Source: Tachypleus tridentatus (lineage: Eukaryota; Arthropoda; Merostomata; Xiphosura; Limulidae). Taken from it: 64,000 bases of DNA. Position numbers and translations under genes: made by a program. Below are positions 34,101 to 62,392 of this stretch, in pieces. The DNA lies in assembly GCF_004210375.1 (NCBI RefSeq), contig NC_134837.1, positions 167,627,310-167,691,309 on the forward strand. The letters run 5' to 3'. The notes under the pieces are model-generated. The model was given only the letters and a program-made list of their open reading frames with translations. It was not told the DNA's origin and searched no databases. Position 1 is the stretch's first letter, and every line of letters begins with the position of its first letter.

Positions 34101-37100
34101 TTTGAATTCAAGAGGAGTTCACTGTGTTGGAATGTGGATGTTTCAACCAATATGTCTCGAGATCAAAGCTTCTTTACTGACTTTGAAGAGCCAGCTAGTC
34201 CCTTCTGAATGAAAAGGGAGACATTTGCCTTAAAGGTTTTCTGAAAGAGAATGTAATATAAGAAAATGAGGTACAGGTGTTACAGATGTTGAAGATTGCT
34301 GCTCAGAATCTTCAAGATGTGTTCGTTTACCTATTGAGTGTTTTTTCACTATTTTATTTAAATTTTTTGTTAGAGGATCCATAGGAAAAAAGGAAAATTT
34401 CGGTACCCACTGACACTACCCACCATGGAGCCCTACGAGGGGATGCACTAAAATGTTATGCAAGGACATTGCAGCAACGCCAGAGTTTCATGAGCACTAT
34501 ACTCAAACATCAGCATCAGACACAATGTCCACAACACCCGTTGAAAATTTCCAACACTAATACTTGGTTGACTCTAACCCAAGTGGACCAGCCAATTGAC
34601 CTAAGGGGGGCCACCCATAGGCCGCCCATCTACAGGAATTCAAGGCCAAAGTGGTGTGTTAGGGTTGGACCCCTCAACCACCAGGATCCTCTCCACCCCT
34701 TCACGGGTTGCCATGCACAGCAAACACGTGGGTGGATGTTTAGATCCTAGAGGAGTTAAACTGAAAGAACAGAACCTTCCCTGGGAGGTCCCCTCAACAC
34801 ATACAGGAATCCACACCGAGGGGTTTGTGATGTAAGAAAGTTAGTTTAAATGATAAAATCATAATTAAATGCACTACTAAATTAAAACCAATGCAATGTT
34901 AAGATTTATGAAATTCACTTATCTATTTATAAAGAGAAACTTCTTGCACAACAAAACAAACATGACACAACATGCTATTATATATAAAACCGAGCCATGT
35001 ACACTGGAGCCACATGGGCTACTCACATCATTCATGTACATTCAACGAAATTGGTTGTTTATCATAATTACTTCTACTGTTTAAAGATGCTTATTTTTTA
35101 ACTAGTTTTCTTTTCAAAAATTATCATCACTACAGTTACACATTAAACTTACTGGAAAGACGTACACTAAACAAATTAAGTACAGATGACTTGCCTGTTT
35201 TCCAACTTCTCTTTTGACTACAGCATTAGCATAGCAGAATGTAACAAACAGCCCAATAACCACCAAGATACCTAAATTTACATACAACAAAGGTAAGAAA
35301 ACAGATGTACATCTTTAAATTCACCATCAAAAAAAAATTATTGCATAATTTTACCACAGTTTATGCTATTTAAAAATCATCTGAGTTGAGGTTGTGGAAT
35401 ACTACATACTGATCTGTATTACAGCATGATAAGTGTTAATTATCAAAATACACAATAAACAATGAAAAATACCATTACTTGAAGTTTTTCATAAATCTTT
35501 ATACCACAGATTAATCTCACAAATGCACTAACACTGCAATACTAACTTTTTAGGTTCATTTATTTGAGTATTTATGTAGTTGGAACAAATACACAAAATT
35601 AAAAGCACATACTGAGCTATAAATTGTAACACGTATGAGGAGAAATCATGAGGTGTAGAGAGTCTAGGGTATATTGCACTGTGCTCGGAAAGTCAACTAC
35701 ATCCCAAACCTCCTCTATGGAATACCAACATCCTCGTGAAGGTAGGATGAGAATCATACCATTTTTACTCAAACCCAAAATTTTGGAATTGAGATCCACA
35801 CCAATTCTTGGGTACTACACAAGGATCATCCCTTTACATCAATCCCAGACTAGCCATTTGGTAATGAGAAGATGGATTAAAATTTTGAGAGAACATATTG
35901 ATTGGTTCACCTGATTTCAGCATTTCAATATTTGGAGCTAACATCCACCTGAAAGTAATGTGAGGGCTCCAATCAAAAGGGAAAAACTGCATGTGCAAGA
36001 GATCAACTCCAGGTGGTATGGAATGTGTAACAGGAAACCATGTCAATGTTAAGGTGAACCAACTTAACTATATGTGTAAATGAATAGTGAAAGGCTGTGA
36101 CAACCACCAGGTAGTGTACATAATATAAGAGGGGTGTATCAGCTCGTATCAACTCAAGTAATTGTGAATTATGTGAATAGTATAAGGAGGCAACGTCATC
36201 CAGGAAGATGACAGACCAACTTCTGTGATAGCATAAATAGTACCAGAGGGCCTTGTACACTGGCAACACCACCAATCAACTTCTGTGAAGGCCACATAAT
36301 ACCTACACTAGCAGACTGTCATCACCTTACTCTTTACTGAATGGTTATAGTAAACTTTTTTAAGGTAGAATCCATTTACGAGGATCTCTCCATGGTATAC
36401 CACCCCAGCAGCTTGAAAATGGAAAGAGAGAAGAATTCTCATGTTCCATTCAAAGGTGATGAAAATGCATTGAAGAGTCCAGATGACTGTCATCATTGGA
36501 GGTAGTGCAATGACACCCCATTTTAAAAAGCAGACCATACCAAGTTATTCACAGGACAGACAGTTATCCTCTTCTGCTTTATCCATGCAGTTTGTTAGAG
36601 GTATGGTCCAGAACAGACATATTTATGAAGCAACTATAACAAGTTAGATAACCTTCTAGCAATCTAGAGGAATGCTCCATTCCTATGGTGACTGTACAGA
36701 GCCAATGCTGACAGCACTTAAATTAACATGGAATGCACCGTGGATTTTAGTGTTAATGAATGCTCAGTCAAGCGGCACTCACCACCAAGCAGGATCCATA
36801 TCATAAAAGGGAAGAAAGACCCTTGAAAAATAACAAAATGAATATAATTTACCATAGATGGAAGATAAGAACTTGATGCAGAAAAAGCTCAAGGTGATGA
36901 AGATAGTAAAAGATAAACATACTGGGCATAGTCCCCAGAGGAGCATGAAGAATTTCCTCCAATGAATGATGAGGACGAGAAATGAGGGAAAATGTGAGAA
37001 TATTGATTGGACAGGAGAAAATATGAAATAAGGTGGACCATATCTGTAAGGGAGAATGGGAAAGAGCACAAAGGAATGATGATTGTGAGGGAATAAAATG

Positions 37101-40100
37101 ATGGTCTTGAGTACACTGGAGGGTTAGCTGTACATGCAAGTGAACTTTATGGCTGAGATTGGACACAGCAGTCTAATGTTGTTTGGATGAGGGTAAAGAT
37201 GAGAGACAGAAAGTAAGAACAACCCTCCTGAGCTGCTGAAATACTGGGTAAAAAGGAGAAGATAGGTAGAATGATAAAAAGTGAAACATCAATGGCAAAT
37301 AAACCAGATTGGTGACATCTGTAGGCCAAATGGAGAAGGAAATAGGTGTTAAAGAACAAATGAAACAATGACCACAAAGAGAGTGGTTCACACAAAAAGA
37401 GAGTCAGGACACAGAGGACTAGATTTAAAACCAATCCTGAACCCAAAACAAATGTAGAAGCATAGCAAGGACAAGGGAAGTAAAAACCCTATGGTAGGTA
37501 GGGAAATGGGTAAGTAAAGTATCGGATAGGTCCATCTGAAAACTAGAAGATAAAGAGATTGAACACCCATGATCAAAGAGACAAGAGAAAACTTCCACCA
37601 CTCTAGCCACAGAAGGTTAGGCAGCAGAAAGTCCCCTGTTAGCTGACATGTTAGCTCTACATGTGAAGCCAGATCTGCTTGCAAAAACTGGACAAAAACC
37701 AGGTGTAAAAATGTAGGACATGGAGGTTGGAATGCAGAGTGGAGGACTGAGGTTGAAGCAGAAGGAATGGAAGCAAAGAAAGAGAGATAAATGGTAAGAG
37801 TAGTATACAGTGGATCTTTGAAAATGTGGCAAATGGAGTGAGTGTACCAGAGAAATCACCTGATGAAGGCAACTGGATGATAGAATACACATAAAAGTAT
37901 GTTCAAGAATATTTCTAGCTGAAGGTATCAAGAGCCAGAGCCTATGAATGAGGTACAAGTAACCAAAATAGTGGCAACTTTGTATTGAGACCCATGACAA
38001 ATGCATCCATTTGAGTAGGTGCCCTCATAAGCAAACATCCCTGAAAACAAGTGGATCGAATTACCATTCATTCTATGGGAGAAATGCAACTCAGGCATGA
38101 AAGACTATCTACAACTGAATTGAAATCAGCCAGCACAACATGCAGTAAGACAAATGTGATGTGCATGAACACAGTAAAGAAGATCTAAAATCCAAAAATA
38201 GACATCTGGGCCATGTGCATCTTCATGGCTGATACCAGCCACCACTATAGACCTGTCTGAAAGAACCACCATCAAACAGCAAAAGGCAAGAGAAAGAAAG
38301 TATTGTAATGCGTCATGAACCAGGAGCAGTTTGAGAAAATCAATAAGCAATGCAGTCTCATATCTAACCAATGGCCTGAGGTTTTGTGGTGATTGATCTG
38401 AGAAAGTGTCCATAGTGTAAGAAGTCTAGCTACCACTGCAGATCATCTTTCAATAAAGGTGGAATGTAAATGGTAGTCAAAGAAGAAACTGTGCAAGATA
38501 CCATTGTGAGCAATAAATGACCAAGTTTAACTTAAGGAACTTAAAGGTCCATAAAACATAGATAAATAAGAAGGCAGAGTGCAACTAATGCTGGTGTCAA
38601 AGAGGACTTCAAAATGCAAAGATTGAGTGAATCAAGATAAGGACTTCTCTAATGTACACAACCAACTCCTAGAATTGTTACAGAAAGGAGGTAGTGAGTG
38701 TGAGTGGTCGATTTCTGCATGGAATGAGCTAAAAGGAACCATATATCCATGTAATAATGGAATGCCAACTCACAGCTGGAAAATGATGAGCAAAAGCTTG
38801 TGCAATGTGACAATATCCAGGGAGTTGAGGCATGTCCAGAAAGAATGCCTGAGGCTAAGTAAACCATTCCAAAATGGATAAACCAAAGAGAAGGTCTAAA
38901 CTAAACTACTAATAAGATATGCAGGTAGACAGTGAAAACATATTACCTGCATCTACCACTGAAGGAAAATGCCCATGTTGGATTGAGAAAAGACTCCATG
39001 GCAAAATTGGGGAGTGCAGTGAAGTGGCTGAGGTGAGAAATCAATGATCAGTCATCAATTACCCTGTTTTTGTTGGGAAAACAAAATGGGAAGAAGAATG
39101 AAAAAACATGTAATGAGAGATGGGATGGGAAAAGAAACTGGATAATGAAACTTTCTGAAAGAATGCTTAGCACCTACTGATATTTGGTGAAGGGAAGCCA
39201 ACAAGACAGAAACAGCAATAATTGAATCTCCCCAGAATTTGAACCTTCATGGTAGTCGCTAGTGGTGTCATGCTACTCCATCAAGGAAGTTAACAAAAAA
39301 AAGAACTCAAATGAAAAAAAGAAGGGTTGGGTTGGTTGGTTGATTTAGTGTTTTATGGCACAAAGCAGCTAGGCTATCTGCACAAAACATCCAGTAAAAA
39401 GTTAAAATTAAATTTAGTAAAATTCATAAAGGGAAATTAAGGAAAAACAAAACAAAGTTTAAAAAACATAACATAAAACCAATGTTTACATCTAAGTCTA
39501 CAATGTCAAGAAAAAAATACAGTAATTCAACTTATAAAGGACTTTCTGTAGAATAACTGTAATAATCATAACTCACCAGGAAGACTAACAGGTAAGTACA
39601 AAAACCACTGCCAGTTACCTGAAGTTGGCCTTTCCAGTCCTGGTTCAGAGTTATTTGATGTTATGACCATTTTCAAAAAGGAAATAAAAAGGTTTTAAAA
39701 GACGTGTAGCAAAATTATAATAATAACTCACCAGGATGACTAACGGTAGTTCAAATGGCATCGTCAGTCACCTGAAGTTGGCCTTTCCAGTCCTGGTTTG
39801 AAGTTATTTAATGTTATGGCCAGTTTCTAATTTCAAATCGAACTAGATGAACTATGATTTTTAAAAGAGAGCCACATTAAAAAGGTGTAATGTATAAATT
39901 AAAAAACTTAAATGGCATAAAAAATTAAGGGCCTTTACTTTAAAAAACTAAAAGCATTACCAAGATGGACAGTGTCACCATCACCAATAACACTGTCCAA
40001 TGTTATGGACAAACTTTGGGACAGAACTTGCTTTAAATAGTGCCATCTTTGAAAGTCAATTATGACAAGAAAGTTAAATGTGGCTTATTGTAATCTGAGT

Positions 40101-43100
40101 GTTACACAAACTACACATTGGTGCATCAGTTCCAGATAAAAGAAAACGATGAGTTAAAAAACTGTGACCAATGCGTAGTCTAGTTAGAACAACTTCCTCC
40201 TTCCGAACTTTACGGAAGCTAGACAGCAAAAGCCCAATATAGGGTTTTATTTGAAAAAGCTTGTTTTCACATTGCTCACTCCAAGTCGACTGCCAGCTGG
40301 CACGGAGCCGAACCTTGAATACAGGACCACAGTCCATGTATGGGACAGGCACAGCAGATTTAGTTGCAGTGTCAGTGAGCTCGTTCCCACGAATACCAAT
40401 ATGGCCTGGTATCCAGAAAACTGGATAGAAGTTAAAGAGAAATAGTTCAGTCAGTTTTGAATATTGGCAAGTACAGGGTGTGAACTGATGTGAAGCGATT
40501 CCAGGGTCAGTGGAGAACAAAGCAAGTGAGTATAAATAGTGCAGTTTGAATATTGCTTAGCTTCTGTGCGATCCAGGGCAAGAGAAATGGCATACAGTTT
40601 AGAAGTGAACACAAGTTGCAGAGGGGATTCTGCATGCAACCACAGAACCACAACAAACCATGGCAGAGGCCACACAGTCACCTGATTTCAAACCATCTGT
40701 ATAAATAAAAATAGAAAGATGGTTCAAAAGATGTTCAGCAAATAACAGACAGTATTTCCAATCAGAAGTGTCTACTTTTCTTAGATGACTTAAAGATAGG
40801 TCACATTTGGGGACAGTAAGAAGCCATGGTTGGATGGGCTGACCAGTGGATACAGCAATGTTATCCAAGAACAGACCCAATTCATCCAACTCTGCCTAGA
40901 TATGAAGGCCAAAAGGAGCAATGGCAGACCAAAGAAGGTTCATGAGACTCTATGTATAAGCTCTGAACTGGGGAAGTGTGGAAAGCTCCAGTGCAGAACC
41001 GAAGTCCTCGATGATGAATAGGTTCTAGCATCATTAAGACTGATGGTCTGGCAGAGCCATAAACCAGTGATCCACAGTCGAGTTTTGATCAAATAATAGC
41101 ATGATATATCTTTAACATAGAACATCGATCAGCTCCCCAAATGGTGGAAAAGAGAACACGGGGGATGTTCAGTGCTCTTGTACATTTCACCCGTGGCTGC
41201 TTGATGTGTGGTATAAAGGTCAGCTTATAGAAAGCAATGGGGTTTGAGAGTATGGGACATCTTCAAAAAGTATCCTAGGCTCGTTTTTGAGCCTTCCATG
41301 CCATCTGGCAGGCAGGATTCCACCATGGATGAGGATATAGTGGAAAACGTGTTGAGGTTTTAGGAATACATTGAGCTGCTGCTTGTATAATACTGTCAGT
41401 TACTACTGCCACACAGTCATCTTTGATTGCTTACAGACGATGGCAGGATCAAGGTCTGTAAGAGCAGTGAAAGAGGGCCAGTTTGCCTGATCCAGCTTCC
41501 ACTGGGGCATGCAGGTTGGGTGGCATCAACCATGGCCAGTCTCTCTCAAGATTATAGGAAAATGATCACTACCTCGTGAATAATCGTCAACTCTCCATGA
41601 AAAATGGAAAAATAATGAAGGGAAGCAAATTGAGAGACTGACTAGTTGCATGGAAATAAGTAAAAGAACCAGTATTGAAAAGAGATAGGTTGTGATTAGA
41701 GAGCATACGCTCTACAGAGCAACCTCTCCTATCAATATCAGCACTTTCCAAGAGGGAATGATGTCCATTAAAGTCCCCAAGGATTAAAAAGGGAGATGGC
41801 AACTGTCAAATGAGAGCATCAAGGTCTGATTAATCATATGTTTCTTCAGGTGACAGGTAGAAACAGTGATGGTATGACCCAAGGAAACACAGATGGCTAT
41901 GGCCTCCAAGGGTGTGTCAAGTGGCAAAGACAGGGTGGGCACATGCTGATCAACCAACAGTGCCACCCCTCCATGCACTCATCCATTACACAGCCTGTCA
42001 TTTCTGTATAAAAAAAACTGCCGAAAAGCAACTGTATCGGAAGGTTTCAGAAATGTTTCCTGTAAGGAAAGACAAACAGGATGGTAGAAAGCAATCAGTG
42101 TTTTGATGTAATCCAGATTAGAACGTATATCTCAACAGTTCCATTGTATCAGGGTGGCCATTTTTATTTACGTGTAGATGAATTGGGTGGAGAACCCTTC
42201 TGTTTACGACCACGTCTTTTTTCCTTACTGTCCTTATTCGAGGGAGGTTTATTGACCTCCATGGATCCTGCCCTGGGTCAATTAGGCAGTTCTTTTCTGT
42301 TGGAAGTGAGGATGTGAATGAATGATTGTTTTGCATCTTGGGGTGGGAGAAGATTATCTTAGGAAATGCCTGTACCTGGAACCAAAGGATGTGGATCTTG
42401 GGGTTTGGTGGAATGTATATAAGGGACAGAGATAAGTGTTGAAGATGATTCATCAACTTTAATGATGGAGGACAAAAAACTTTTCATTTGTTTGGAGAAT
42501 GATTCTTTTGGAGGCACAGAGAGATCTGTCTACACTCCCACTGTAGTTGTGGAACAAAGTGCAGCAGCATACGTCCGAGATGAGGTGGTGGACAGCAATG
42601 TTAGAGCCTCAAGATAAGTAATGTTATGAATTGTTTTCAAATGCTGCACCTCTTTTTCTTCCAACCATTTATGGCAAGAACAAAAGTAGAATGGGTGAGA
42701 GCCATTGCAATTGATGCAATGAGGGTCCATTTAACACTCATAGGCATCATGGTCCTTGCCACTGCAACAAGCACAGTTTTGAGTAACCAAACCGTTGACA
42801 CTGGAAACATAGCAGAGGGTTTGGAATATATGGCCGTACCCTGCAATTAAGATAACCTGCCTTAATGGTGGCAGGCAGATGTGGTAACGTAAATGTGAGA
42901 ATGAGGACATTGGTCGGCATCATAATTCCATCTTTGCGAGTGGATATACTCCTCACTGCAAAAACTCCTTGGGTGGAGAAACCAGTGAGAATCTCCGACT
43001 GTGGGATGTTCTTCAAATCCCTCTCAACAATAACTCCTCGTCATGAATTCAAAGTAGCATGAAGTGTAACCTCAATAGGTATATCCCCAATTGCCTCTGA

Positions 43101-46100
43101 ATGCAATAGGAGTTCACTGTGTTGATATGTGGATGTTTCCACTAATATGTCACCAGATAGAATCTTCTTTACTGAATTTGCAGAGCCAGCAAGTCCCTCT
43201 GGTCCCTTCTCAATGAAAAAGGGAGACATTTGCCCTAAAGGTTTGTCTGAAAGAGAATGTAGGATAAGAAAATGAGGTACAACAGATGTTACAGATGTTG
43301 AAGATTGCTGCTCAGAATCTTCAAGATGTGGTCATTTAGCTATAGACTGGTTTTTCACTATTTTATTATGATTTTTAATTGGAGCATCTACAATAAAGAG
43401 AGGGAAATTTTGGTGCCCACTGACTCCACCCACCATGGAGCCCTATGAGGGAATGCACTACAATGTCAAACAAGAACACTGCAGCAATGCCAGGGTTTTG
43501 TGTGCATTATACCCAAACACCAGCATCAGATATAATGTCCACAAGACCTGTTGAGAACATCCAACATTGATACTTGGTTGAACCTCACCCAAGTGGACCA
43601 GCTGACTGACCCAAGGGGGCCACCCCAAGGCTGCTTGTCTACCGGCATTCAAGTCCAAAGTTGTGTGTTAGGGACCACCAGGATCTTCTCCTCCCCTTCA
43701 TGGATTGCCATGCATGGCAAACATGTGGGTTGATGTTTAGATTCCAGAGGAGGTAAACTGAAGGAACAGAGCCTTCCCTTGGAGGTCCCCTCATGATGTA
43801 CAGGAATCCACACTGAGGGTGGAAGGGTTGGGAGAAAACAGTAGTATGTAAGGCTCCAACAGAGAAAAATGGGCTATAAAAATGTAGACAGCCATTTGAT
43901 TAACATCACACATGGTTTGATATTGTAAGAGACAGCAGCAAATACATGAAACCTCACAAAAGGAGAAAAACATAAAACTGTGATATAGAAGATAATAAAT
44001 AATCTTAGTAAAAACAGTCCTTAACTAGGAAATCCAAATAACAAAGGAACCACATGGTGTAAAACCAGAGTTGAGGAGTAACTATGGGCTAAAGAGGAGA
44101 AAAGAATGCAAAGGGTATAAGCAAAAATCCCTCACGATATCTCTGGAGATCCTCTGAGAGACAATGTAAGGTAAAAAAGGTACCAAAAAAGCCTATGCAT
44201 AAGATTAATAGTAAATTTGGTAACTGTCCTCCAAAGTGGTAAAAAATAACAAACAATTACTTTTCAAAGAATGTATAGTTTACCTGATGGTAAGAAATGG
44301 CAATAACTGATCAGTACTTAAAAGGTGCAACAAATTAGTCTCCCTGCAGAAATGCAAGGTTAACAAAACAGCAACAACATGAATCTCAGGGGAGGAAGGA
44401 AAACCACAAGTGGTAAAAATATACAACTTAAAATGGAGAAGGAAATAGATGGCAGAAATAAAACACAAATGTGAAACAGAAATTCCAATAATGAATTAAG
44501 CATGGGAGAATCCCCAGGTTGGAAATGGTAATGAACAACAAATTCTAGATACAGAAAAAGGTTAACAAAGTCCTCATCCATCAGTAAAGGCTCTGCAATT
44601 TCAATAGGAATCATGGCAAAATCCAGGGAAAAGATGGACCTGTAACATTCGACCTCACAAGAGAGGAAAGCAGATAAATCCATTAAACAATCTGAAGCCC
44701 ACGAAATATGTTAGTCACTGTTCTAACCACTGATATGGAGAGGTGAACTTCAAGATGCATTGCAGAAATAAAGTAGCATGAATTAAATAAGAAAAATGAA
44801 AAAATTTAGTTGAACAAATCAAAATATATTTAAATGAACCATTTTGGGAGGAAAACAGTCATACACACAGGAATAAACATGAGCATGTTATACTACTATT
44901 GGTTGATGAATGATGCACGATGATTTGCATGTAAAATATACTAATTCCAACGAGTGTTTGAGCACAAAGCTTGTGGCATGCATAAAGAAAAAGTTCTCGT
45001 ATATAGGACAGCACTGAATGTGAATAACTACTCTTGTGGGGGTGAGGTAAGTACTATGTCAATACTATAATACTTTACAATGAATTATATTGTAGCTTTT
45101 GTTATATTTGTAACATTTATAACATTAAGAATAAAAAAAAGAATTAAACAGATCATAATTTGTAGGTTAATCACCATGTTTCTGCCACAATATCCCAACA
45201 AGGCCAACTGTGACACTAAGAACTGTGAAGAATAGAGAAAATTGAAAACTGTCTATAGCAATGTTTGGGACCTGTAAGAAGGTATCTTTGTACCAACTCA
45301 CATGTAAGTTGGGTGATACACACAAAGAGTTTACAAAAACTCCAAATTGTGATTTCTCATTGTAAAATTGAACATTAAAAAATTGTACTAAATCTCAAAC
45401 AAACTGGACAAAATAAGGTGGAGTAATTGTCAAAAACCCTAAAATCATGTTCTTTAGATCATCTTAGCTCTCCCATAATGTCTAAAAATGGCAAGTATAC
45501 CATTGGTGTCTGTCAATGGGTGGGCTACAGAGAAAAGTATTTCTGTATCAAATGTCATGCAAACTGGTCAAATCCCAAACATTATGCTTTTTGTGAGTTC
45601 TGATTTATCTAATGAAAAAAAGACCAAAAATGAGCAAAAACAATTGTTTCTAAGTCAGATGCATAAAAATGTATATTTGTGCCAATTCTGATTGTTGTAA
45701 ATATGACTACATTGGAGACCAAACTAAACATTTAAGGGTAGACATTTGACCCCATAAAATCTTTTCAAAGGCCTAAATAAAAAAGTAAAGAACCAGGCCA
45801 CTGGAACAATGTAAAACCCTATAAAATTTTAAGTCAATCTGCCCAAAAATGAAAGAATGGTTGTTTGTTGAAAAGTGTTTGGAAGATAATAAAAGAAGAA
45901 ACATTAGAAAACAGTATGTTCAGTAGAATCTAAACATAAATGACATCCTTCTGAATGTGTCCAAATACCCTCTATACAAAGGTGCCCTTAATGTCCAGAA
46001 TGAGCCACACAAAACTTGGTTTCATATTGACTATGCTAAATTTCTGAATTTTAAGGCCCCACTTGGGTGTACAAATTTAAAGCCATTTTTTTACATGTAT

Positions 46101-47043
46101 GTAGGCAGTGTTTTTGTGTATACTGTAAAAAACGTTAAATAAATGGAACAAAGAAGTATGTGTTTTTCAATTTTTTTCCATTCCACATGTATGAAAATCA
46201 CATACATGTAAAAAGTTGGCATGCAAAATGGTTCATTGCTCATATAAGGAACAAGACTAAACACAATGGCCTTAATCTAGAAGAACAAGGTGCCCACTAT
46301 TTTGGTTGCAAACAGTAGAAAAAAAAAGGATGAAAAGTCCCACCCTTCATGATGTGATGACTCTTAATAGATGTTCTACTGTCTTTCTGCAGAAACAATA
46401 TAAATCTCATTACTTACACAAGATAAAAATAAGAAAACTCACCAATTCTATGATCAAAAATCACCTTCATCAGAAGAATAAACAGAAATGGAACATATTT
46501 TTCAGCAAGAGACAGCAATGCTCGAACTTCTGGATTATTACGAAGTAGCTCAGAAGCATCCTCTACTGGTCTGCCAACAGAAGGTCCTCTATTTCCAGAG
46601 TTGTTTCTGCTTTCATCTGAAGCAGAAGCCATCTGAATACCAACTCCACCACCAGCAGGGATATTTCTTGCATGTGGTTCTCGTTGTCTGTTACCCATGC
46701 CACTCATATCTATCACAAAGTCTCTTGCAACTTCTGAATTAGAAGCAACACCAGTTGTTGACGTAGATACCGGACTTGGTTCTGTTATGGTACCTTGTAG
46801 CCAGGATGACATGCTTGGTCCACTATCTCTTTCAGAAGAAGCTGGTTCTTCTGCTAATGGATTTATACCTCGAATGACATGGCGTATATCTTCACTGATG
46901 CTCCAAGAGCTAGAATTGGTTATGTTACGTAGTTGGGATGATCCAAGGGACCAGTGGAAATGAAAAGATGGCCGACCTCTGCCAAATGGAAAAAGACGAT
47001 GACTTGGACCATCATGACTTCGACTTTCTTCACGCTCAGCCAT
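19003..47043 (-). CDS. RING-finger transmembrane E3 ubiquitin ligase, RNFT1/RNFT2-like (gene span)
   Basis: Eight coding exons on the - strand: 47043-46443, 35271-35195, 27904-27804, 26684-26531, 22794-22645, 21733-21677, 21027-20926 and 19134-19003. They total 1374 nt, join in frame throughout and give 457 residues, close to human RNFT1/RNFT2 (about 440). The layout is a Ser/Gly/Arg-rich cytosolic N-terminus (1-170), about five hydrophobic segments (170-360) and a C-terminal C3HC4 RING (398-435), then a short tail. The family acts as ER-membrane ubiquitin ligases; human RNFT1 is linked to ER-associated degradation. An acceptor (TTTTACAG) 16 bases before the ATG implies an untranslated 5' exon further right, not located. 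The large introns host the LINE insertions. Confidence 0.93.
20926..21027 (-). CDS. RNFT-like exon 7 (first half of RING finger)
   Basis: 34 codons, with [16 protein letters not shown] then [18 protein letters not shown]. It supplies the first three zinc ligands, Cys398, Cys401 and Cys413. Acceptor CTTTCAG, donor AAG|GTACAT. Confidence 0.95.
21677..21733 (-). CDS. RNFT-like exon 6
   Basis: A small 19-codon exon, [19 protein letters not shown], linking the last membrane segment to the RING. Acceptor GTGCAAG, donor AAG|GTGGTG. It is phase 0 on both sides and of a length compatible with the family's linker. Confidence 0.82.
22645..22794 (-). CDS. RNFT-like exon 5 (conserved region with membrane segment)
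   Basis: 150 bases, 50 codons: [50 protein letters not shown]. This block is strongly conserved in RNFT proteins (the G-K-[FY]-Y-L...E..SQL[YF]R pattern). Acceptor ATTTAG, donor AAG|GTGAGT. Confidence 0.92.
23285..23660 (-). pseudogene. Tc1-like transposase remnant
   Basis: Broken - strand frames resemble the middle and C-terminal part of a Tc1/mariner transposase: an [11 protein letters not shown] block near 23500 and [16 protein letters not shown] at 23380-23330, the degenerate form of the PPQSPDLNPIE...W motif. The catalytic Glu is retained, but frames shift and stops occur. No terminal repeats were found. It lies in RNFT intron 4. Confidence 0.6.
23665..24060 (-). pseudogene. Penelope-like element fragment with GIY-YIG endonuclease remnant
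   Basis: Read on the - strand, combined frames give [14 protein letters not shown] and then KEHRKS-like [20 protein letters not shown] with SQILSRETN. These match the order C..C..YIG...R..EH...H...LSRE in the GIY-YIG endonuclease of Penelope-like retroelements. Stops and frameshifts make it non-functional. Upstream of it (24035-24010) the - strand carries CTGATGA and a GACGTG/CACGT hairpin, a hammerhead-like half motif without the GAAA. Confidence 0.5.
26531..26684 (-). CDS. RNFT-like exon 4 (conserved core; possible GC donor)
   Basis: It encodes [40 protein letters not shown] and [10 protein letters not shown]. The acceptor is TTTTACAG|G. The reading frame into exon 5, which starts in phase 0 at GKYYLFLE, fits only if the exon ends at AAG before GCTAGT. 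The nearest GT would break the frame, so this appears to be a second GC donor. Confidence 0.88.
27804..27904 (-). CDS. RNFT-like exon 3 (membrane segment)
   Basis: 101 bases encoding [33 protein letters not shown] (residues 227-259 plus two bases). The acceptor is TTTTTTTTCAG and the donor is GC|GTAAGT. The hydrophobic stretch matches the third membrane segment of the family. Confidence 0.88.
29065..29345 (-). repeat. Tandem repeat in LINE 3' UTR
   Basis: Two imperfect units at about 165-bp spacing, each containing CGCCAGGA(A/C)GACTAA and GTCACCTGAAGTTGGCC, CCAGTCCTGG on the + strand. The same pair is present in copy 2 at about 39570-39800, so it belongs to the family rather than to this insertion. 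Confidence 0.85.
29465..33119 (-). pseudogene. LINE copy 1 ORF2 (endonuclease, reverse transcriptase, RNase H)
   Basis: Start at [15 protein letters not shown] (33119). Endonuclease motifs: [23 protein letters not shown]. An open 241-codon stretch (31818-31093) holds the reverse transcriptase: [51 protein letters not shown] and the LYVDDF active site. RNase H near 30240-29900 has [28 protein letters not shown] and a trailing NEL...A block. The ORF ends HLDKVLVF-stop at 29465. Interrupting stops include a TGA after [10 protein letters not shown] (shared with copy 2) and a TAG after GHHPL. Confidence 0.9.
33430..34224 (-). pseudogene. LINE copy 1 ORF1 (gag-like, zinc knuckles)
   Basis: A decayed gag-like protein. 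[24 protein letters not shown] and [15 protein letters not shown] form three CCHC-type zinc knuckles, the usual nucleic-acid-binding part of I/Jockey-type ORF1. A frameshift lies near 33715 between the second and third knuckles. Another lies near the start at about 34200, where copy 2 is still open ([15 protein letters not shown]). Confidence 0.8.
35195..35271 (-). CDS. RNFT-like exon 2 (membrane segment; GC donor)
   Basis: The 77 bases encode [18 protein letters not shown] and KREVGKQ (residues 201-226), which aligns with the second hydrophobic segment of RNFT proteins. The acceptor is TTTAG|G. The donor reads AACAG|GCAAGT, a GC donor with an otherwise ideal consensus, and no in-frame GT alternative fits the next exon. 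Confidence 0.88.
35920..39320. other. Strand-asymmetric purine-rich intron block, left part
   Basis: From about 36.4 to 39.3 kb the + strand is markedly rich in A and G (runs such as GGAATGGAAGCAAAGAAAGA). The complementary strand therefore shows long overlapping open frames of Phe, Ser, Leu and His that I regard as composition artefacts. No conserved protein or repeat family was recognised. LINE copy 2 is inserted at its right edge, and similar sequence continues beyond it. Confidence 0.5.
39332..43821 (-). mobile_element. Non-LTR retrotransposon copy 2, internally deleted
   Basis: The same family as 28831-34823, on the - strand in RNFT intron 1. An exact 11-bp target-site duplication, GAAGGGTTGGG, lies at 39321-39331 and 43822-43832. 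The 5' end (CACCCTCAGTGTGG) and 3' end (AACC-type simple repeat) are present. At about 41229 the sequence jumps between points matching 30881 and 32165 of copy 1, so about 1.29 kb covering the reverse-transcriptase core is missing. ORF1 zinc knuckles (43016-42530), endonuclease remnants (42106-41590) and RNase H with [14 protein letters not shown] (40460-40400) survive with stops. Confidence 0.93.
43833..46442. other. RNFT intron 1, right part
   Basis: The first kilobase or so continues the purine-rich composition seen left of LINE copy 2, as expected if LINE inserted into one older block. From about 45.2 kb the sequence is ordinary AT-rich intron with no supported gene or recognised repeat. 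Confidence 0.45.
46443..47043 (-). CDS. RNFT-like exon 1 (start codon, N-terminal domain, first membrane segment)
   Basis: The chosen ATG at 47043-47041 ([12 protein letters not shown]) follows an acceptor at 47060 and is the first Met in frame. It encodes residues 1-200 plus one base. The region is rich in Ser, Gly, Arg and Asn and of low complexity, as in vertebrate RNFTs. It ends in the conserved [17 protein letters not shown] and [18 protein letters not shown], the first hydrophobic helix. The donor is G|GTGAGT at 46442. Confidence 0.93.
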
Positions 47044-47059
47044 GATATTCACTGTTTCA

Positions 47060-49214
47060 CTGTAAAATATAATAAGAAAATAAATAACATAAGTATCTTT
47101 TCTTTCTCATTTTTATTATATTAATTTGACAAATTTATTTTTTATTAGTTTCAATTCTATTTTTGAGTTCTTGATAAGCCTCTTTTACAATTTACATACA
47201 TCTTCTATCAAAACTCAACTCCATAATAATAAGGAGAAATTCTTTCAAACCACTATATGTGTATCAGTTGTTTTAGCCATGACCTTTCAACATAAACTGT
47301 TTTCAATTTTTTGATGAGGCTTAAGGACTTGTACAGAGTATAATCGGTAATGATCTTTACTGTTACTGATCAACCAGATTAAGTGTATCCTCAATTGCTT
47401 CCACTCTGCTCTAAATGAACTGAACAGCCTAGTTTAATCCTAATAACTGAAGATCTCATATGTCATGAAAGAGACTGGACAAATTCCACATTTGAAAAAA
47501 GCATGTCATCCTGTCATTCAAAATGGACAACCAAGGTTGACTGAGAAAAGTCTCCCAAAGTGAGAGTTACAAAAGCATTCACCAAAGGGTTTCTGAAATG
47601 GGAATAAGTCCAATGCAAGACTGAAGGACCACTCCATGGGATGGATCAAAACAAGAAGAAAGTGACAATCTATCATTAGATACAAATGTTAAAATGCATG
47701 ACCAGACACGAGATGAATGATGACAACTGCAAACTCAAGAAAGGAAATACATAGCCACAAAATACAGATTCTGAGAGCATATGCCTCCCTTATGGTTGAC
47801 TGAAGTGATAAACAGATTCACAACAACCAGTTAATTGCAACCAAAGAGGAGAACAAGCCCAAAAGAGCTACAGTATCACCAAAAAATGTGTGTATGTATA
47901 TACACATACACACAATGCTCCCTTAGAGACTAAGCCACCAATATAGTGGTCATATTAAAAACTGCACCAAAAAGAAAGAGGTATATCAGTGGAAAGATGC
48001 AAGTCAGGCCAAAGAGGAGTAGTAGTATATTCCAGAATGTGTTGGAAATTATTGAAGAGAGGAACACAGAGAAAAAGTCAGGCACACACCAAAGAGAATG
48101 CAGGACATGTTGCAACGATTCCTCTAAACACAATGTATACTTGCAAGACTAAAAAAACATCTATGCTCCTACAGAAAATTGTCAGAAAAAATAGACCCAT
48201 ACTGTAAGATAATTAATTTTTTTGTAAAATAACTATAACGGTCATCCATGAAAAGTATACATCGAATGTCAAAAAATATTCCTATTGTGGTAACAGGACT
48301 GTTTCCCTATAAAAAAGTTGATGAGTTGGTTAAAGTGGTGTGGAGATTAGGCATAAAGAATCCACAAACCATAACAATACTGATTCCCCAACATGATTAA
48401 CTCAGAGGAAAGAATGTGTGAAGACATTATGGGATTTAGAATAAATAGGAAAAAAAGAAGTTATCCACATACCTTAACTTTTGTTTCATCCAAATTGGAG
48501 AAGCGTAAAAGTGATGGAAGAAAAAAGAATGCTGCATACCAATATTTCTTAAGTTGGACACCTCTGAAGAGCAAAGTCCTGTTGGAAAGTTGCATGTGAA
48601 CACAGTCCAATGGGAAGACTTTGTGAAATGTAACTGTTATACTCTAAACAAAAAGGATATCTTTATGGTAGGTGTGAATAATATAAGACTATTAATAAGA
48701 AATTCCAAGGATTGTAACCCCATAGAATCACCTTAAGTGTACCTTGAAATGTGTTGTTTAAACCCTCTATGTATAATATAGTGTGTTAGTACTAAAATGA
48801 GAACTGGAGATATAATTTTCCCAAAGGATATGGTCTTCTGAGTTCATGTAAAAGACTGAAAATACAAAATGTTATAATATGTCAATCATTCGTAGTAAAG
48901 TAAAACATCTATGTTGAGTCAATGGAGAAGACTAGCACAAAATGAATTATTCTACGATAAATAAATGAAACCAAGAGGAAGGACAGTAAACTGATAACTA
49001 CAACCCCCAATAACAAAAATGAGATATCTTCAGGAAGAGTTAAGTCAGGTCTATTAAAGGCCTCCAATACCTTGACACCTGCAAAATCACAGAGTTGGGA
49101 GTACAAACATGGATAATTATAATGAACTATTTCAACTCTGCAGGAAATTTGAGACTTCTTAACCCAGAATTTAAAACTGAGTGGAATGAAAGGAAAAAGT
49201 ATTAAGATTCAAAT
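47060..49214. other. DNA upstream of RNFT exon 1, unassigned
   Basis: This region probably contains part of a 5' intron of RNFT, since an acceptor precedes the ATG. No 5' UTR exon or promoter could be picked out. A short near-palindrome of TGTGTATG/CATACACA type lies near 47888-47912. No coding frame with a recognised domain was found. Confidence 0.4.
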
Positions 49215-52300: not shown

Positions 52301-53985
52301 AGTTGTTGTTTGGCATTTTATAGCACAAAAGCAACTAGACTATTTGAACCAAACAACTGGTAAAAAAACAAAACAGTGAAAGTATTATAAATTTTAATGG
52401 GAAATTATATTAAAACAAAAACAGTGGTAAAATGTCAGATAAAAACTTGAATAGAATTAAAAAGGCCAACTGTTCTTAAAAAATTAAAAACATTTGTAAG
52501 GTAAACAGTGTCACCATAGCCAATAACACTGTCCAATGTTAGGGGTAAATTGCTGGTAAAAACATGTCTAAAATGGTGCCATTGTTCATGGTCGTAATGA
52601 TGGTACAATAGTAAGATGTGGGCTATTGTGACTTGAGTATTACACAGACCACACTTGGTGCATCAGTTCCAGACAGAAGAAAACAATGAGTTAAAAACTG
52701 TGACCAATGTGTAGCTTAGTTTTTATCACTTACTCCTACTGATCCTTACAGAAACAAAATGGCCAAAGTTCAATAGAAGATTTTATTTGGAAAAGCTTAT
52801 TGTTGACTGGCAACTGGCGCAGAGCCGAGCCTTTAATACAGGGCAGTAGTCTTATCACAGCAGTGATAGAACCAAAGCAGGCAGACTTAGATGTGGTTTC
52901 AGCAAGCTCATTCCTGTGAATTCCAGAGTGATCCAGTATCAAGAAAAACTGGATAGAAGTAGATGATAAAAAGCAATTTGCCAGTCAGATTTGAGTATTA
53001 ATGAGAGTTGGATGAGAACTAATGTGAAGCAATTCCAGGGGCAGGATAGAGCTAAGTGAGTTGATGTAAATAGTACAATTCATGAACTGCAGAGCTTCTA
53101 CATGATCCAGAACAAAAAAATGGCATTAAATTCAGCATTGAACACAGAAACCACAGATGGGATCCTGTGTGCAACCATCAAATAAAACAACCATGGAAAA
53201 GCCCACAGAGCCACCTGATTTAGGAGTATCCACTTTCTTCAGATGACTCAAAGAAAAGTCAAACAAGTATGGTAATAAACCATGTTGGAATGGGCTAACC
53301 TGTGGAGACAGCAATGTCATCCAAGGACAGACTCAATTCAGCCAACCGTATCAGGATATGAAGACCAAAAGAAACAATGGAAGACCATCTCTTCTGAAAA
53401 AGCATGGCTCACTGAGGAAGGAACACAACCCAAGTAAGGTGATGTGGTAAGGATCAAAGTTTTGAGGCATGCAGTAAAGACAGTTGCAAGTGGCAGATGT
53501 GCAGAAGAGGTTCATGAGATTGTGTAAAAACTCTAGAATGGAGAAGTGCAGAAACCTCCCATATAGAGCCAAATCCCTAAACGGTCAACAGAGTCCAGCA
53601 TCTTCAAGACTGACGTTCTGATAGAGCCATAGACCAGAGACCCATAGTCCAGCTGTTTTCAAATGAAGGCACAATAAATCTTGAACACATAGCATTGATT
53701 CACTCCCAAAGAGGTAGAAAAAAGGGCACAAAGGATGTTCAGTGCCCTTGTACACTTGATGTATAGCTACTTGATGTTTAGAAATAAAATCAGGTTACAG
53801 TTAAATATAAGTTCCAAGAACTTTGCCTCGGGAACCACATGAAGAACAACTTCATTGACATGGAGCTCAGGATCGGGGTGAATACTCCACTGGTGGTTTA
53901 TCAGAAGTAAACCAAAGTGCTGAAATATCAACCAACCCACATTAGCATTCTTCTTCCAAATGGAAGACCATTGCAAGCGAGATCC
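52301..53985 (-). mobile_element. Non-LTR retrotransposon copy 3, 5'-truncated
   Basis: A more diverged copy of the same family. It begins at the 3' tail (GGCATTTTATAGCACAAAAG at about 52313), includes the CACTGTCCAATG 3' region, an RNase H remnant (GIHRNELAETTSKSA near 52930-52880), and stops in sequence equivalent to the end of the reverse transcriptase (HPDPELHVNEV near 53880). Everything further 5' is absent, as in incomplete reverse transcription. No target-site duplication was identified. Confidence 0.8.
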
Positions 53986-56981: not shown

Positions 56982-57825
56982 CAGTTATTCAAATATGCTA
57001 CTGAAATTCATAAAAATATGTGAAAAAATCTAAATGTTTAACATACCTGGCAGCAATGGATTTTCAACATGTACTGCAATATAAATTACTACATAAAATG
57101 GACAATGTAACTATTTATTAACCTGTTTGCAATGGGTTCAAATATAATATACACAATTTGACACATTAAGTATGTGCACTATAACTTTTGATACAGCATC
57201 TGTATTTTCATAAAATATTGTAAACTTCTTGAAGAGATCACAAGTATATTGCATACAAAAAATCTTATTTTCAATGAAATATTTTTACCAAAGATTTTTT
57301 TGTGAAAATAGCTTTTCATTACTAATCTGAGAGCAAAGTGATTTCATATTATGACTAAAAACTATTCTTCCCAAAAAATATCTACTATCTGTATATTCTC
57401 TTACATTCTCCTAAACACATTTCTAACATTAGTTTTCAGTAAGACTTTATATTTTGTATTTTATATACTCTCACTATGTGGGGTGTCACTTGACCAACCT
57501 TGTAACCATGATAAAAAAAAAAAAAAGTTATGCCTTTTTTGTGCAAGAATGATTCCATATGATAACAAAAATACAAATGTTTAGTCTTAGTAGCTTGAGT
57601 CTCATAAAGTTATATATTTACACATATTTACTACTTTTTTATTATATTGACCTTCCAGTTATGCCTAACCAATATTACATAACTTGTATTGATGTGATGC
57701 ATATGCACTCATGTATGTATTCAGAAATATAAAACTGACCTTTTAGTCTTCCCTGTCTTGGCTGTGTTCCAATGGACTAGTATTTTGTAATATCGTCACA
57801 TTTCAATTACCATACACTATATATA
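55441..57825. other. AT-rich DNA with two AT microsatellites and a dispersed repeat
   Basis: No supported gene. AT dinucleotide repeats lie at about 56205-56229 and 56940-56977. A segment at about 56510-56670 resembles 63840-64000 at the window end, including TTTGGATTTT and AGATGGGATA, so it belongs to an unnamed dispersed family. Confidence 0.6.
56510..56670 (+). repeat. Unnamed dispersed repeat, copy A
   Basis: Shares an ordered series of short blocks with 63840-64000: TTGAG, CCCTTAA, AGTTTTCATC/AGTTTTTCATC, GTTTGGATTTT/ATTTGGATTTT, TAGATGGGATA. I estimate moderate identity with small indels. It is too short and diverged to classify. Confidence 0.6.
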
Positions 57826-58913
57826 CACTGCTGGCCAAGATCTTAAGGGCAATGAACATAAAGGAAAAATATGCATTTTGCTTTGTTAGGCTCAACCACT
57901 TATTTGAGTAGAGCTTCAAAAGATGAAAATAAGAAAAGGGAAAAAAAAAATAAACGTTTTTAGCATTTAATAGGAAAAACGTGAACACTATGAAATTAGC
58001 CTAAATACTAGTTGGTAAAAAGTTTAAGACCATACCAAAAAGAAGTCCTAAACAGGATTAAAATTCCCAACAAGAGATCTCAGTTGCATGGCCATCATTG
58101 AGAATAACTTCTAACATTTGCTTTCTCATGGTCGATATAAGCGTTTGCAGAAGGCTGGCTGGAATTTTATTCCAAGTGGTGAAGATCGCTTCACAAAGAT
58201 CATGCACTGTTTGGAATTGGCATCTATTTCTATAGACTTCCCTTGCTACCCACCCCCAAACATTTTCAATGGGGTTCAGTTCGGGCAAACACACTGGATG
58301 GTCCAAAAGAATCACGTTATTCACCATGAAAAAGTCCTTTGTCCTACAGGCATTGTAGATTGCAGCATTGTCCTGCTGAAAGATCCAGTCATTTCCACAC
58401 AAGCGAGGGCCTTCAGTCAATAAGGATGCTCTCTCGAACATGCCAATGTAGCCAGCTGCTGGTTGATAACCAAGATATATGCAAAAGCGGTTTTAATACG
58501 CTGAATCTAACAAGTGATAGCATGATGAGAGAGACCTCGCTTTGGCAGCTCGACAATTCTGCCACGTTCAAACTCTGCCAACTTTTAAGCCTTTGGCATG
58601 TTTTTACCCAACACAGATGTCAGTGAGAGATGTTGACAACGCTAATGCTTGAACACCAACGACTAAATTTCATGACGTGTTTACCAATTAATGCTTCGTT
58701 TCAGTATGATCTTAAACTTTTGACCAGCTATTATTTAGGCTAATTTCATAGTGTTCACATTTTTCCCATTAAATGGTAAAAAAGTTTATTTTTATTTTCT
58801 CTTTTCTTATTTTCATCTTTTGAAGCTCTATTCAAATAAGTGATTGGGTCTAACAAAGCAAAATGCATATGTTTTCTTTATGTTCATTGGCTTTAAGATT
58901 TTGGCCAGCAATG
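57826..58913 (-). mobile_element. Internally deleted Tc1-like element with about 210-bp inverted repeats
   Basis: Terminal inverted repeats at 57826-58035 and 58704-58913 begin CACTGCTGGCCAAGATCTTA and CATTGCTGGCCAAAATCTTA, and each is flanked by TA, the expected target duplication. The interior carries a - strand transposase in pieces. N-terminal KLAEFERGRIVELPKRGLSH lies near 58600-58540, then a jump, then an open C-terminal part (58441-58058) with WIFQQDNAAIYNA and PELNPIENVWGW, the second and third acids of a DD34E triad. About 150 residues with the first catalytic Asp appear deleted. It is non-autonomous. Confidence 0.92.
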
Positions 58914-58930
58914 TATATATATATATATAC
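58914..58930. repeat. TA microsatellite at Tc1-like element border
   Basis: A TA run directly follows the right inverted repeat, and a shorter TATATA precedes the left one at 57819-57825. TA-rich targets are preferred by Tc1 elements, so the exact duplicated TA cannot be distinguished within the run. Confidence 0.7.
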
Positions 58931-59453
58931 AGATTATTGCTATTCAAAAATAATTTGGATATAGGTTGCTAAGCCTTTAAAAATTTTACACACGTAGGAA
59001 ATAATGTTTTTTTAGTTTTTATGTATAAATACACAGTTGAATAACTAAAAAATCATAAATAACTACACAGATACATTAAAATTCCACTATAATTTATTAA
59101 GCTTAGTAACTAAGATGTACTTAGGTTTCAAAAAATATGAAACCCCAATCAGACAAAAGATGCAACCTACCTCATTGAAATCTTGGGTTGAAAGAATGTG
59201 GTCCCCTTTTCACAAATTAAAATGACTGATAAAACCACTCTGTGAAAATTCTAAGCTGTTGATTGGTTATTCACATGTCAAAAATTGAAGTGTATACAAG
59301 GGACTATTTCCAAAAATGAAAAGAGGTGAATGGTGTCGCTGTGATTCAGTATGTAAGCCACATCAACAAAACTAAAAGTGTATGAGATTCTTGTATATAT
59401 TCTAACTTGATAATATAAGTAATTTGAGTTTCATTTTGTGCAAAACTACAGAA

Positions 59454-60165
59454 GGGTCATTCCATGTCAAATCATCCAGGGGGCTGCAGGTGATCCCATC
59501 AGAATGCCTTGAAAAAATTCACATGTGCTCATCTACCCCTATAATGAAAATTTTCCAAAGATTAGATCAATCTCTAATAGTTTATGATTTACAGCCCTGT
59601 AAAATTTAATTACTTTTTTGTTATATTTGGCAAATTAATTTCTGGGCAACTTTGGCTGCTTTAAGCTGCAAGAGTAATGGTGGTAGAAGGCTGAAATTTG
59701 GTACACTGACTGAATTAATCTCACAGACTTCAAAAATGGTCTCAAACCAAGTTTATCTCTCTTAGGATTTGCATAGTGAGGCTGTAAAATCACCTGAAGA
59801 CCCAAGATCATAAAAAAACATTGGTTTATTTAATAAGCCATAGCTCTAAGACTTAATATGATACAAAGCTGAATGTTATTTTCAAATTTCCTATAACATA
59901 CCAGTTGATATGTCAGCAATTGCTGTAATTAAAAGTCTATTAGATGTCCTGTAAAAAAATTTAGTTGCTTGCAACTTTTTATAATTTAGCTAAAAATAGC
60001 CCAACTTCAGACCACAGTTTGACCATGTCACCAGTTATTCAGCCTTTTCAGAAGTTTACCATATATTCTTACATCTCTGAATATGATCTACAAAAAAAAA
60101 TCAAGATGGTGTCCAACCTACTTTTTGAGTTATAATCTTTTTAAAGTATCCTCTGACCATACGTT
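59454..60165 (+). repeat. Left terminal inverted repeat (about 712 bp)
   Basis: An imperfect inverted copy of 61671-62388, with matching landmarks such as TTTATGATTTACAGCCCTGT, CATAGCTCTAAGAC and ATCAAGATGGTGT. Small indels and substitutions between arms show it is not a recent perfect palindrome. Confidence 0.92.
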
Positions 60166-60633
60166 TTTTATTTTAAAAAAATTCAGTTCAAGTGTGTCAC
60201 TGTGTGCAAATATATCCATACAATTTTGAAAAATACCTGTCAGAATGTTATGAATCCCACTGGAATATTCTAACCTGCCTTTCACAATGTTAAATAATGA
60301 AGTTATAAGAAACAAGAAAGTATTAATTCATTTCTGAACAAGTTTATTGGCATATCTAGTTAGATCACATGGCAATGCAAATATATTGTGTATGCATTAC
60401 AGTTATGCAGATATGGCTGAGTTTAAGATTCATAATATAATAAATACAAAGGTAAATCAGACACAAAAAGCACAGTGCTACAACAGGGGGTAACTGAGAA
60501 AGATTATAGTCACACCAAACTGAAATAATCGTGATAATGCAGTGTTTCAAAAACTGCTTTGACTACAAATTAGCCTTAACAACATCAAATAAACATTGCT
60601 TTATTCAGACAGCTTGAATAAATTTCTGAATAT

Positions 60634-61500
60634 TTAGTTTATGTTGAGATCACCTTCACTTAGAACATAGTGGCGAGAACTACTGCCTTGCACGGTAGGT
60701 GCACTTATCAGACAAAAAGTATGTTTGAAAGGAATCCAGCTTTCATCTTTACGTGACCTTGCAGACCATGAGATCAGTTCGTTTCTTGATTTCTTCATAA
60801 ATGACATCAACACATCGGAATGTTCATCTGATCTATCTTTTATGTTTCCCACATACCATTCATAATCGTATACACATGCCACATATTTCCCTGGCTGATA
60901 ATTGTCATTGCTATCACTAGACCCTATTTGAGCTGCTGTAGCATCACTTTCACTGCTACTACCAACAGTTACAACTGTGTACACATCATCATCTGATAGC
61001 CTTCTCATATACATTTTGTTGGTAGAGTGGGGAATAAAACTATGATGTGACCTAATACCTGCCACAGTTTTGCATTTTTTAAAGTATTCAAGTAGACCAA
61101 ACTTTACACAATTCTGCAGGACTGATTCCTGATTGACAAGAAAGAACTGAATGCCCTGAATGTGGTCCTTTGACCAATGGTACATGTCAGAGATACTTAA
61201 AAGTTGATCATTTACAGGCAGTTGAAGGCTTGCATGAGCCACCAGCCTCTTCACCACACCCCCAACTCCATCACATGAACATTTCCCATGACTGGTGGCA
61301 AAAACATGCCATTTAGTGGGCAACTGATGATCTTCAAAATGGTAGCAAGAATTTGAAAGATTTTTAAAATTCTTGAATTACAAAGCTGCACCATCGCTGA
61401 AATAAATGATCCTTTCAGTGTTTGGATATTTCTGTTTAACATGGCTTGGTACTGTGGTAATGAAAACATGAACAGCTACTGTGTCGTGTTTCAGACAATC
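60634..61500 (-). pseudogene. Transposase-like protein, C-terminal part (DDE-like, SH3/Tudor-like tail)
   Basis: An open 229-codon stretch (61323-60634) begins in KWHVFATSHGKCSCDGVGG and ends in a small beta-rich tail (GKYVACVYDYEWYVGNI, then ESWIPFKH, FCLISAP). Upstream in the same frame lie LSDCLKHDT and ERIIYFSDGAAL, giving two acidic candidates (SDC and FSDG), followed by one in-frame TAA at about 61380 where a Gln codon is expected. The N-terminal half is missing. I recall this ATSHGK...DG.GG...KR signature from uncharacterised proteins in many invertebrates. It is almost certainly inactive. Confidence 0.7.
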
Positions 61501-61670
61501 TGACAGAACACACATGATAACATGGATATCTTGAGATCATGATCAGAGATGTAAGAATATATGGTAAAGGCTGATTAGAATATTTCAATTGGATTCATAA
61601 AGTTTTTCAAAAGTGTATGGCTATATTTCCAGACAGTACACACCTGAAGTGTTTTTTTTTCAAGTAAAAA

Positions 61671-62388
61671 ACATATGGTCAGAGGATACTTTTAAAAAAT
61701 TATAACTCAAAAAGTAGGTTGAACACCATCTTGATTTTTTTTGTAGATCATATTCAGAGATGTAAAAATATATGGTAAAAATCTGAAAAAGCTGAATAAC
61801 TGGTGACATGGTCAAACTGTGGTCTGAAGTTGGGCTATTTTTAGCTGAATTATAAAAAGTTGCATCAACTAAATTTTTTTACAGGAGATCTAATAGACTT
61901 TTAATTACAACAATTGCTGATTTATCTACTGATATGTTACAGGAAGTTTGAAAAAAACATTCAGCTCTGTATCATATTATGTCTTAGAGCTATGGCTTAT
62001 TAAATAAACCAATGTTTTTTACAAGTTTGGGTTTTCATGTGATTTTACAGCCCCACTATGAAAATCTTAAGAAAGATAAACTTGGTTTGAGACCATTTTT
62101 GAAGTCTGTGAGATTAATTCAGTCAGTGTAGCAAATTTCAGCCTTCTACCACCATTACTCTTGCAGCTTTAAGCAGCCAAAGTTGCCCAGAAATGAATTT
62201 GCCAAATATAACAAAAAGTAATTAAATTTCACAGGGCTGTAAATCATAAACTATTACAGATATTGATCTAATCTTTGGCAATTTTTCATTATATGGGTAG
62301 ATGAGCACATGTGAATTTTTTCAAGGCATTCTGATGGGATCACCTGGAAAATTGTCCAAAATCTGGATGATTTGACATGGAATGACCC
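61671..62388 (-). repeat. Right terminal inverted repeat (about 718 bp)
   Basis: Partner of 59454-60165. A related extra segment, ATCAGAGATGTAAGAATATA at about 61545, lies just inside the arm in the same orientation, so part of the terminal repeat is itself duplicated subterminally. Confidence 0.9.
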
Positions 62389-62392
62389 AGAA

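What the first reader, a model, noticed from the sequence alone, without database searches (positions are those of the whole stretch)
59450..62392. Transposon with about 710-bp inverted repeats, 4-bp AGAA duplication and an uncommon transposase
The ends are exact (GGGTCATTCC on both strands) and flanked by AGAA on both sides. About half of the element's length is inverted repeat, far longer than for most cut-and-paste elements. The coding remnant carries an ATSHGK...DG signature and an SH3/Tudor-like tail, not typical of hAT, Tc1, piggyBac or MULE transposases. A Sola-type affiliation is plausible but unproved, so this may be a poorly described lineage or subfamily.
Basis: partly seen in the sequence, partly recalled or inferred. 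Interest (0 to 1): 0.75.

Follow-up and report, generated by a model that had tools for sequence, protein, structure and literature searches.

The report
Decayed Sola-like transposon with long arms
This is a broken, internally deleted cut-and-paste transposon with very long inverted ends and a 4-base target duplication; it is probably an ordinary member of the known Sola kind, although direct comparison with Sola reference proteins could not be run.

Summary
A 2,935-bp element (59454-62388) lies between exact AGAA copies. Its inverted arms are longer than stated: 829 and 823 bp, 755 of 812 aligned bases identical, 56% of the element. The gene (- strand) is a dead 3' part: 300 codons from 61536, one of them an in-frame TAA, then a final TAA. 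One relative was found, in a contig filed under a bacterial MAG (L004): an intact 705-codon frame between GGGCAATTCCAT inverted ends (window: GGGTCATTCCAT). It has the first Asp that the window lacks and gives D-79-D-40-D; D-40-D is kept in the window. DDD, a non-TTAA 4-bp duplication and arms within the 11-1124 bp printed for Sola (PMC10741241, passage) make Sola the best filing. No Sola sequence was available to compare; no Pfam transposase model matches the remnant or L004. A 35-bp third copy of arm sequence sits where the gene is cut off, as an interrupted gap repair could leave (inference). Verdict: a non-autonomous, decayed member of a probably known kind; low interest.

The parts
59450..59453 (.). 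left copy of target-site duplication AGAA
   Evidence: read directly
62389..62392 (.). right copy of target-site duplication AGAA
   Evidence: read directly
59454..62388 (.). whole element, 2,935 bp
   Evidence: inverted ends plus flanking duplication
59454..60282 (+). left inverted arm, 829 bp
   Evidence: local alignment to right arm, 755 of 812 aligned columns identical
61566..62388 (-). right inverted arm, 823 bp
   Evidence: local alignment to left arm
60634..61536 (-). 3' part of a DDD-like transposase gene: 300 codons, one of them a premature TAA, then the final TAA at 60634-60636
   Evidence: frame read; relative L004 identical at 73 of 291 aligned positions
61378..61380 (-). premature in-frame stop TAA
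61393..61395 (-). codon of the second catalytic Asp (FSDG), inferred
   Evidence: Asp conserved in L004; coordinates read
61270..61272 (-). codon of the third catalytic Asp (HGKxxxDGxGG), inferred
   Evidence: Asp conserved in L004, D-40-D spacing in both; coordinates read
60691..60921 (-). C-terminal tail, possibly SH3/Tudor/Agenet-like
   Evidence: coordinates; low-confidence model with five short strands; non-significant Foldseek matches
61534..61568 (.). third, 35-bp copy of an arm segment (others: 60055-60089 inverted, 61745-61779 direct) at the junction of arm and truncated gene

Best explanation
A dead, non-autonomous copy of a Sola-like cut-and-paste DNA transposon. Shown: element ends, one 4-bp duplication, long diverged arms, the 3' part of a gene with one premature stop, homology of that part to an intact protein with a DDD pattern in another element with a similar terminal motif. 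Inferred: the gene product was a DDD transposase that cut at the GGGTCATTCC ends and joined them to staggered 4-bp target cuts; this copy lost the 5' part of its gene (with the first Asp) by an internal deletion, probably interrupted repair after excision, with a 35-bp templated filler left at the junction; it could then move only with transposase made elsewhere, and it has since decayed in place.
For: Ends and AGAA duplication. Relative L004: intact 705-codon frame with QVDFSENA, FSDGPSSQFK and HGKGIIDGLGG; D-79-D-40-D in L004, D-40-D in the window. The homology does not rest on the searched motif alone: the 82 residues before it score 45.1 bits against L004, best of 200 shuffles 20.0. L004 has GGGCAATTCCAT at both ends (288-299 and 3812-3823), 10 of 12 bases as in the window. 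tblastn of the 705-residue L004 frame against the window matches residues 422-704 (E 1e-17); its first 421 residues give only two hits elsewhere at E 3.9 and 8.7, so the 5' part is gone from the element. Third 35-bp arm copy at the break. Sola as printed: DDD transposase, 4-bp duplications, mostly 2-9 kb, inverted repeats 11-1124 bp (PMC10741241, passage seen). CpG observed/expected is 0.12 in the element and 0.31 in the window, in keeping with age.
Against: No Sola protein or profile could be compared. Only one relative was found, at 25% identity, and the part after the motif (204 residues) is not significant by itself (18.9 bits; 200 shuffles up to 25.4). AGAA is not of the AWWT type printed for some Sola2 elements (PMC3627910, passage seen). 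L004 shows no matching 4-bp duplication (AAAT and TTCT in gene orientation). The two terminal motifs differ at 2 of the first 11 bases, one more than Repbase allows for filing non-autonomous elements by ends alone (PMC4455052, passage seen). The pattern was written after seeing both ends, so its low chance value (0.07) is no independent test. The catalytic core model failed (mean pLDDT 32.2), so an RNase-H fold is not shown. One copy gives one duplication.
Confidence: 0.72

Rival explanations
1. A transposon of a superfamily other than Sola (for example Academ, Ginger, CMC/Chapaev or an undescribed 4-bp lineage).
For: 4-bp duplications are not unique to Sola (recalled for Chapaev, Academ, Ginger); no Sola reference could be compared; no Pfam transposase model matches.
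Against: No integrase-core Pfam match in L004, against Ginger; GGG ends rather than the CAC-type ends recalled for CMC; no Glu conserved soon after the third Asp in the two-sequence alignment. Academ was not tested.
Confidence: 0.2
2. A foldback-type element whose long arms arose by inverted duplication and which captured a gene fragment, the arms being what moves.
For: Arms make up 56% of the length; the relative L004 has only a short inverted terminus (17 nt at 88%), so long arms need not be a family trait.
Against: The gene fragment resembles the gene in L004, whose element has a similar terminal motif: gene and ends probably belong together. Long inverted repeats are within the printed Sola range.
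Confidence: 0.07
3. Artefact: an inverted repeat made by misassembly.
For: The window also holds a 99.5% direct duplication of 5.8 kb, which could be an assembly matter.
Against: The arms differ at 57 of 812 aligned sites plus gaps, end abruptly at a terminal motif like that of L004, and are flanked by a 4-bp duplication.
Confidence: 0.01

Closest known systems
Sola superfamily (Sola1, Sola2, Sola3)
   Same: 4-bp duplication, DDD-like pattern, inverted repeats and size within printed ranges
L004 element (JAAEPJ010000558.1, contig in a bacterial MAG, probably a eukaryotic contaminant: inference)
   Same: Homologous catalytic part, D-40-D spacing, ends identical at 10 of 12 bases
   Different: Intact gene, about 3.5 kb, short inverted ends, six copies of a 14-nt TGTTGGACGTA-type motif on both sides of the gene, no matching duplication visible
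Foldback-type elements such as Tetris of Drosophila virilis (PMC4079207, search listing and start of abstract seen)
   Same: Long inverted arms (from the listing's matched term; not read further)
   Different: Here a transposase remnant is present and a relative with similar ends has short arms

Membership tests
Sola | 4-bp target-site duplication | tested here: met
   AGAA on both sides; one copy only
Sola | DDD transposase | tested here: inconclusive
   D2 and D3 in window and L004 at equal spacing, D1 in L004 only; two sequences, no structure
Sola | terminal inverted repeats of 11-1124 bp, size mostly 2-9 kb (PMC10741241, passage) | tested here: met
   829/823 bp, 2,935 bp
Sola | significant similarity to Sola1, Sola2 or Sola3 transposases | not testable with these tools
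   no Repbase/Dfam and no eukaryotic protein set on hand; the 2009 and 2011 source papers are not held
Sola | RNase-H fold of the catalytic core | tested here: inconclusive
   model of the L004 core unusable, mean pLDDT 32.2
piggyBac, Kolobok (and Sola3, recalled) | TTAA duplication (piggyBac and Kolobok: PMC9587614, passage) | tested here: not met
   AGAA
hAT, Tc1/mariner, MULE | 8-bp (recalled), TA, or 7-12-bp duplication (the last two: PMC10741241), and their Pfam transposase domains | tested here: not met
   4-bp AGAA; no such Pfam match in remnant or L004
Ginger | Gypsy-type integrase core | tested here: not met
   no such Pfam match in the intact L004 protein
Academ, CMC/Chapaev | own transposase signature | not tested
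   no reference sequences to hand; the terminal CAC of CMC is recalled and absent here

The most novel reading that the evidence does not exclude
The window element and L004 belong to a transposon superfamily outside Sola, marked by GGGYMATTCCAT ends, 4-bp duplications, a D-79-D-40-D transposase with FSDGxxxQFK and HGKxxxDGxGGxVKR, and a chromatin-reader-like (Agenet/Tudor) tail that could steer insertion.
Probability: 0.08. Interest if true: 0.5.

Novelty: new member of a known kind. Interest (0 to 1): 0.2.

Why it matters
Mostly as annotation: the motif pair FSDG(x3)QFK and HGK(x3)DG(x)GG with D-40-D spacing, together with GGG..ATTCCAT ends, is a handle for finding this family; no Pfam-A model in the copy searched matched it. 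If the Agenet/Tudor-like tail is real it would suggest insertion guided by histone marks, which could be tested. As a locus it is an ordinary dead transposon.

Tried and rejected
Own-genome search for other copies: no genome is held. With the 247-aa remnant: Pfam gave one unrelated row at E 0.047 and the 52-aa upstream piece one at 0.03; PDB 0 matches up to E 5; NCBIfam 0 and PHROGs 0. PADLOC was not searched. With the L004 protein: Pfam 2 unrelated rows at E 0.042 and 0.13; PDB best E 1.1, a C/EBP-beta bZIP, not followed; NCBIfam and PHROGs were not run on it. tblastn of the remnant in plasmids and phages: 8 records at best E 3 and 1 record at E 4. Viral contigs: 7 of 8 scans used, no relative; pattern candidates (4, 2 and 202) failed the tool's tblastn check. 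One search gave 4 stretches, which I translated and compared: best tblastn E 0.007 over 44 residues reaching the searched motif, rejected as chance. Genome contigs motif scan: 4 stretches, 1 real (L004), 3 rejected after translation. L004's own genome: 1 match, itself. Its phylum (400 asked, 3 genomes searched): 1 of 3 matched, again itself. L006-L008 proved to be contigs of 538-687 bases and were not used. Models of the core (mean pLDDT 32.2) and tail (45.6) are of low confidence; the tail's Foldseek search has 142 matches at E 10 or better, 0 at 0.001 or better, top TM-scores about 0.2-0.35, so it is only a hint.

Literature: seven searches. In one search, 65 papers held one of six words; the 20 listed all matched only the DNA word, in titles unrelated to transposons; the other 45 were not seen. 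Passages only were read of PMC3627910, PMC10294476, PMC7998251, PMC10741241, PMC9033089, PMC3985635, PMC5199201, PMC4455052, PMC9587614, PMC11071193, PMC8230255 and PMC9783078; none of these passages prints Sola terminal or transposase sequences.

Considered and dropped: piggyBac/Kolobok (TTAA needed), Tc1/hAT/MULE (duplication length, Pfam), Ginger (no integrase core), misassembly (arm divergence).

Full report
What is there. The element runs from 59454 to 62388 (2,935 bp) and is flanked by AGAA at 59450-59453 and 62389-62392. The outer 26 bp of the two ends are identical. The inverted arms are 829 and 823 bp; 755 of 812 aligned columns agree, with 28 gap positions and a K2P distance of 0.074. 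Together they are 56% of the element. BLASTN at E 1e-3 found no second copy in the window.

The gene. On the minus strand an open frame of 247 codons (60634-61377) continues in frame beyond a TAA at 61378-61380 up to 61536: 300 codons, one of them the TAA, then a final TAA. It carries YFSDGAAL, then the stop, then HVFATSHGKCSCDGVGGVVKR, and its final stop lies about 350 bp short of the left arm's inner edge. Upstream of about 61534 the frame runs into arm-related sequence with several stops.

The relative. The remnant alone matches nothing useful in Pfam, NCBIfam, PHROGs or the PDB, nor in plasmids, phages or viral contigs. A degenerate DNA pattern for HGKxxxD[GA]xGG found 4 stretches in the genome-contig collection; 3 of 4 are chance and 1 is a relative: L004, a 4,028-bp contig filed under a bacterial MAG. 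I take it to be a eukaryotic contaminant (inference, not tested; its G+C is 34.5%). It has an intact 705-codon frame between GGGCAATTCCAT inverted ends at 288-299 and 3812-3823. The window's ends read GGGTCATTCCAT, the same at 10 of 12 bases. The search pattern was written after seeing both ends, so its chance value (0.07) is not an independent test; and 2 differences in the first 11 bases is one more than Repbase's rule for filing non-autonomous elements by their ends (PMC4455052, passage).

Is the homology real? L004 was picked by a motif taken from the window, so I tested the rest apart. The 82 residues before the motif score 45.1 bits, against at most 20.0 in 200 shuffles; the 204 residues after it score 18.9, within the shuffle range up to 25.4. 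So homology of the catalytic part is well supported; the tails align at 20% identity, which is not significant by itself.

Catalytic pattern. L004 has QVDFSENA, FSDGPSSQFK and HGKGIIDGLGG, with 79 and 40 residues between the Asps; the window keeps the second and third with the same 40. No Glu is conserved soon after the third in the two-sequence alignment. This reads as DDD; it rests on two sequences and no structure, since the model of the core failed (mean pLDDT 32.2).

What was lost and how. tblastn of the 705-residue L004 frame matches the element from its residue 422 on; its first 421 residues give only two hits elsewhere in the window at E 3.9 and 8.7. So the 5' part with the first Asp is gone. 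At the cut, 61534-61568 is a 35-bp third copy of an arm segment whose other copies are at 60055-60089 and 61745-61779. A templated filler at a deletion junction is what interrupted gap repair would leave; this step is inference from general knowledge. CpG observed/expected is 0.12 against 0.31 for the window, which fits long decay.

Filing. PMC10741241 (passage) gives Sola as DDD transposase, 4-bp duplications, mostly 2-9 kb, inverted repeats 11-1124 bp. PMC3627910 (passage) gives AT-rich 4-bp duplications for amoebozoan Sola2 elements, AWWT in one species, which AGAA is not. PMC4455052 (passage) treats Sola1-3 as groups of one superfamily. Of the five Sola features in the membership table, 2 are met, 2 inconclusive and 1 not testable. 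The untestable one, sequence similarity to Sola transposases, is the defining one: the source papers are not held and no eukaryotic set is on hand. From recall only, proteins with this motif pair are common among uncharacterised arthropod and cnidarian proteins, which makes a wholly unknown lineage less likely.

Results against. L004 shows no matching duplication (AAAT and TTCT). The tail model is low-confidence (45.6) and its top Foldseek matches, Agenet and 53BP1 Tudor domains, are at E 0.43 or worse. There is one copy, hence one duplication.

Verdict. A real, decayed, non-autonomous transposon; probably Sola; new member of a known kind. Interest 0.2.

Noticed in passing
window 1-5767 and 10850-16623: Direct duplication of 5.8 kb at 99.5% identity, carrying the same 110-codon hAT-like frame (named by eye), on either side of what looks by eye like aldolase exons (6398-7065); recent duplication or assembly artefact.
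   Followed up: partly
window 57818-58921: Another element: 228-bp inverted repeats at 89.9% around a Tc1/mariner-looking frame 58058-58492 (- strand; named by eye).
   Followed up: no
window 28835-34822, 39332-43819, 52441-53896: Diverged repeated copies, 70-86% identical, with reverse-transcriptase-like frames, probably Jockey-like non-LTR elements (by eye).
   Followed up: no
window 3279-3491 and 14139-14360: Palindromic repeat of about 200 bp, MITE-like.
   Followed up: no
window 20716-21051 and 46414-47106: Frames on the - strand that look by eye like exons of one RING-finger membrane protein gene with long introns; points to an animal host, not verified.
   Followed up: no
L004 284-299: One end of the L004 element is preceded by AGAA, the same four bases as the window's duplication; the other end is not. 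Chance or a target preference.
   Followed up: no
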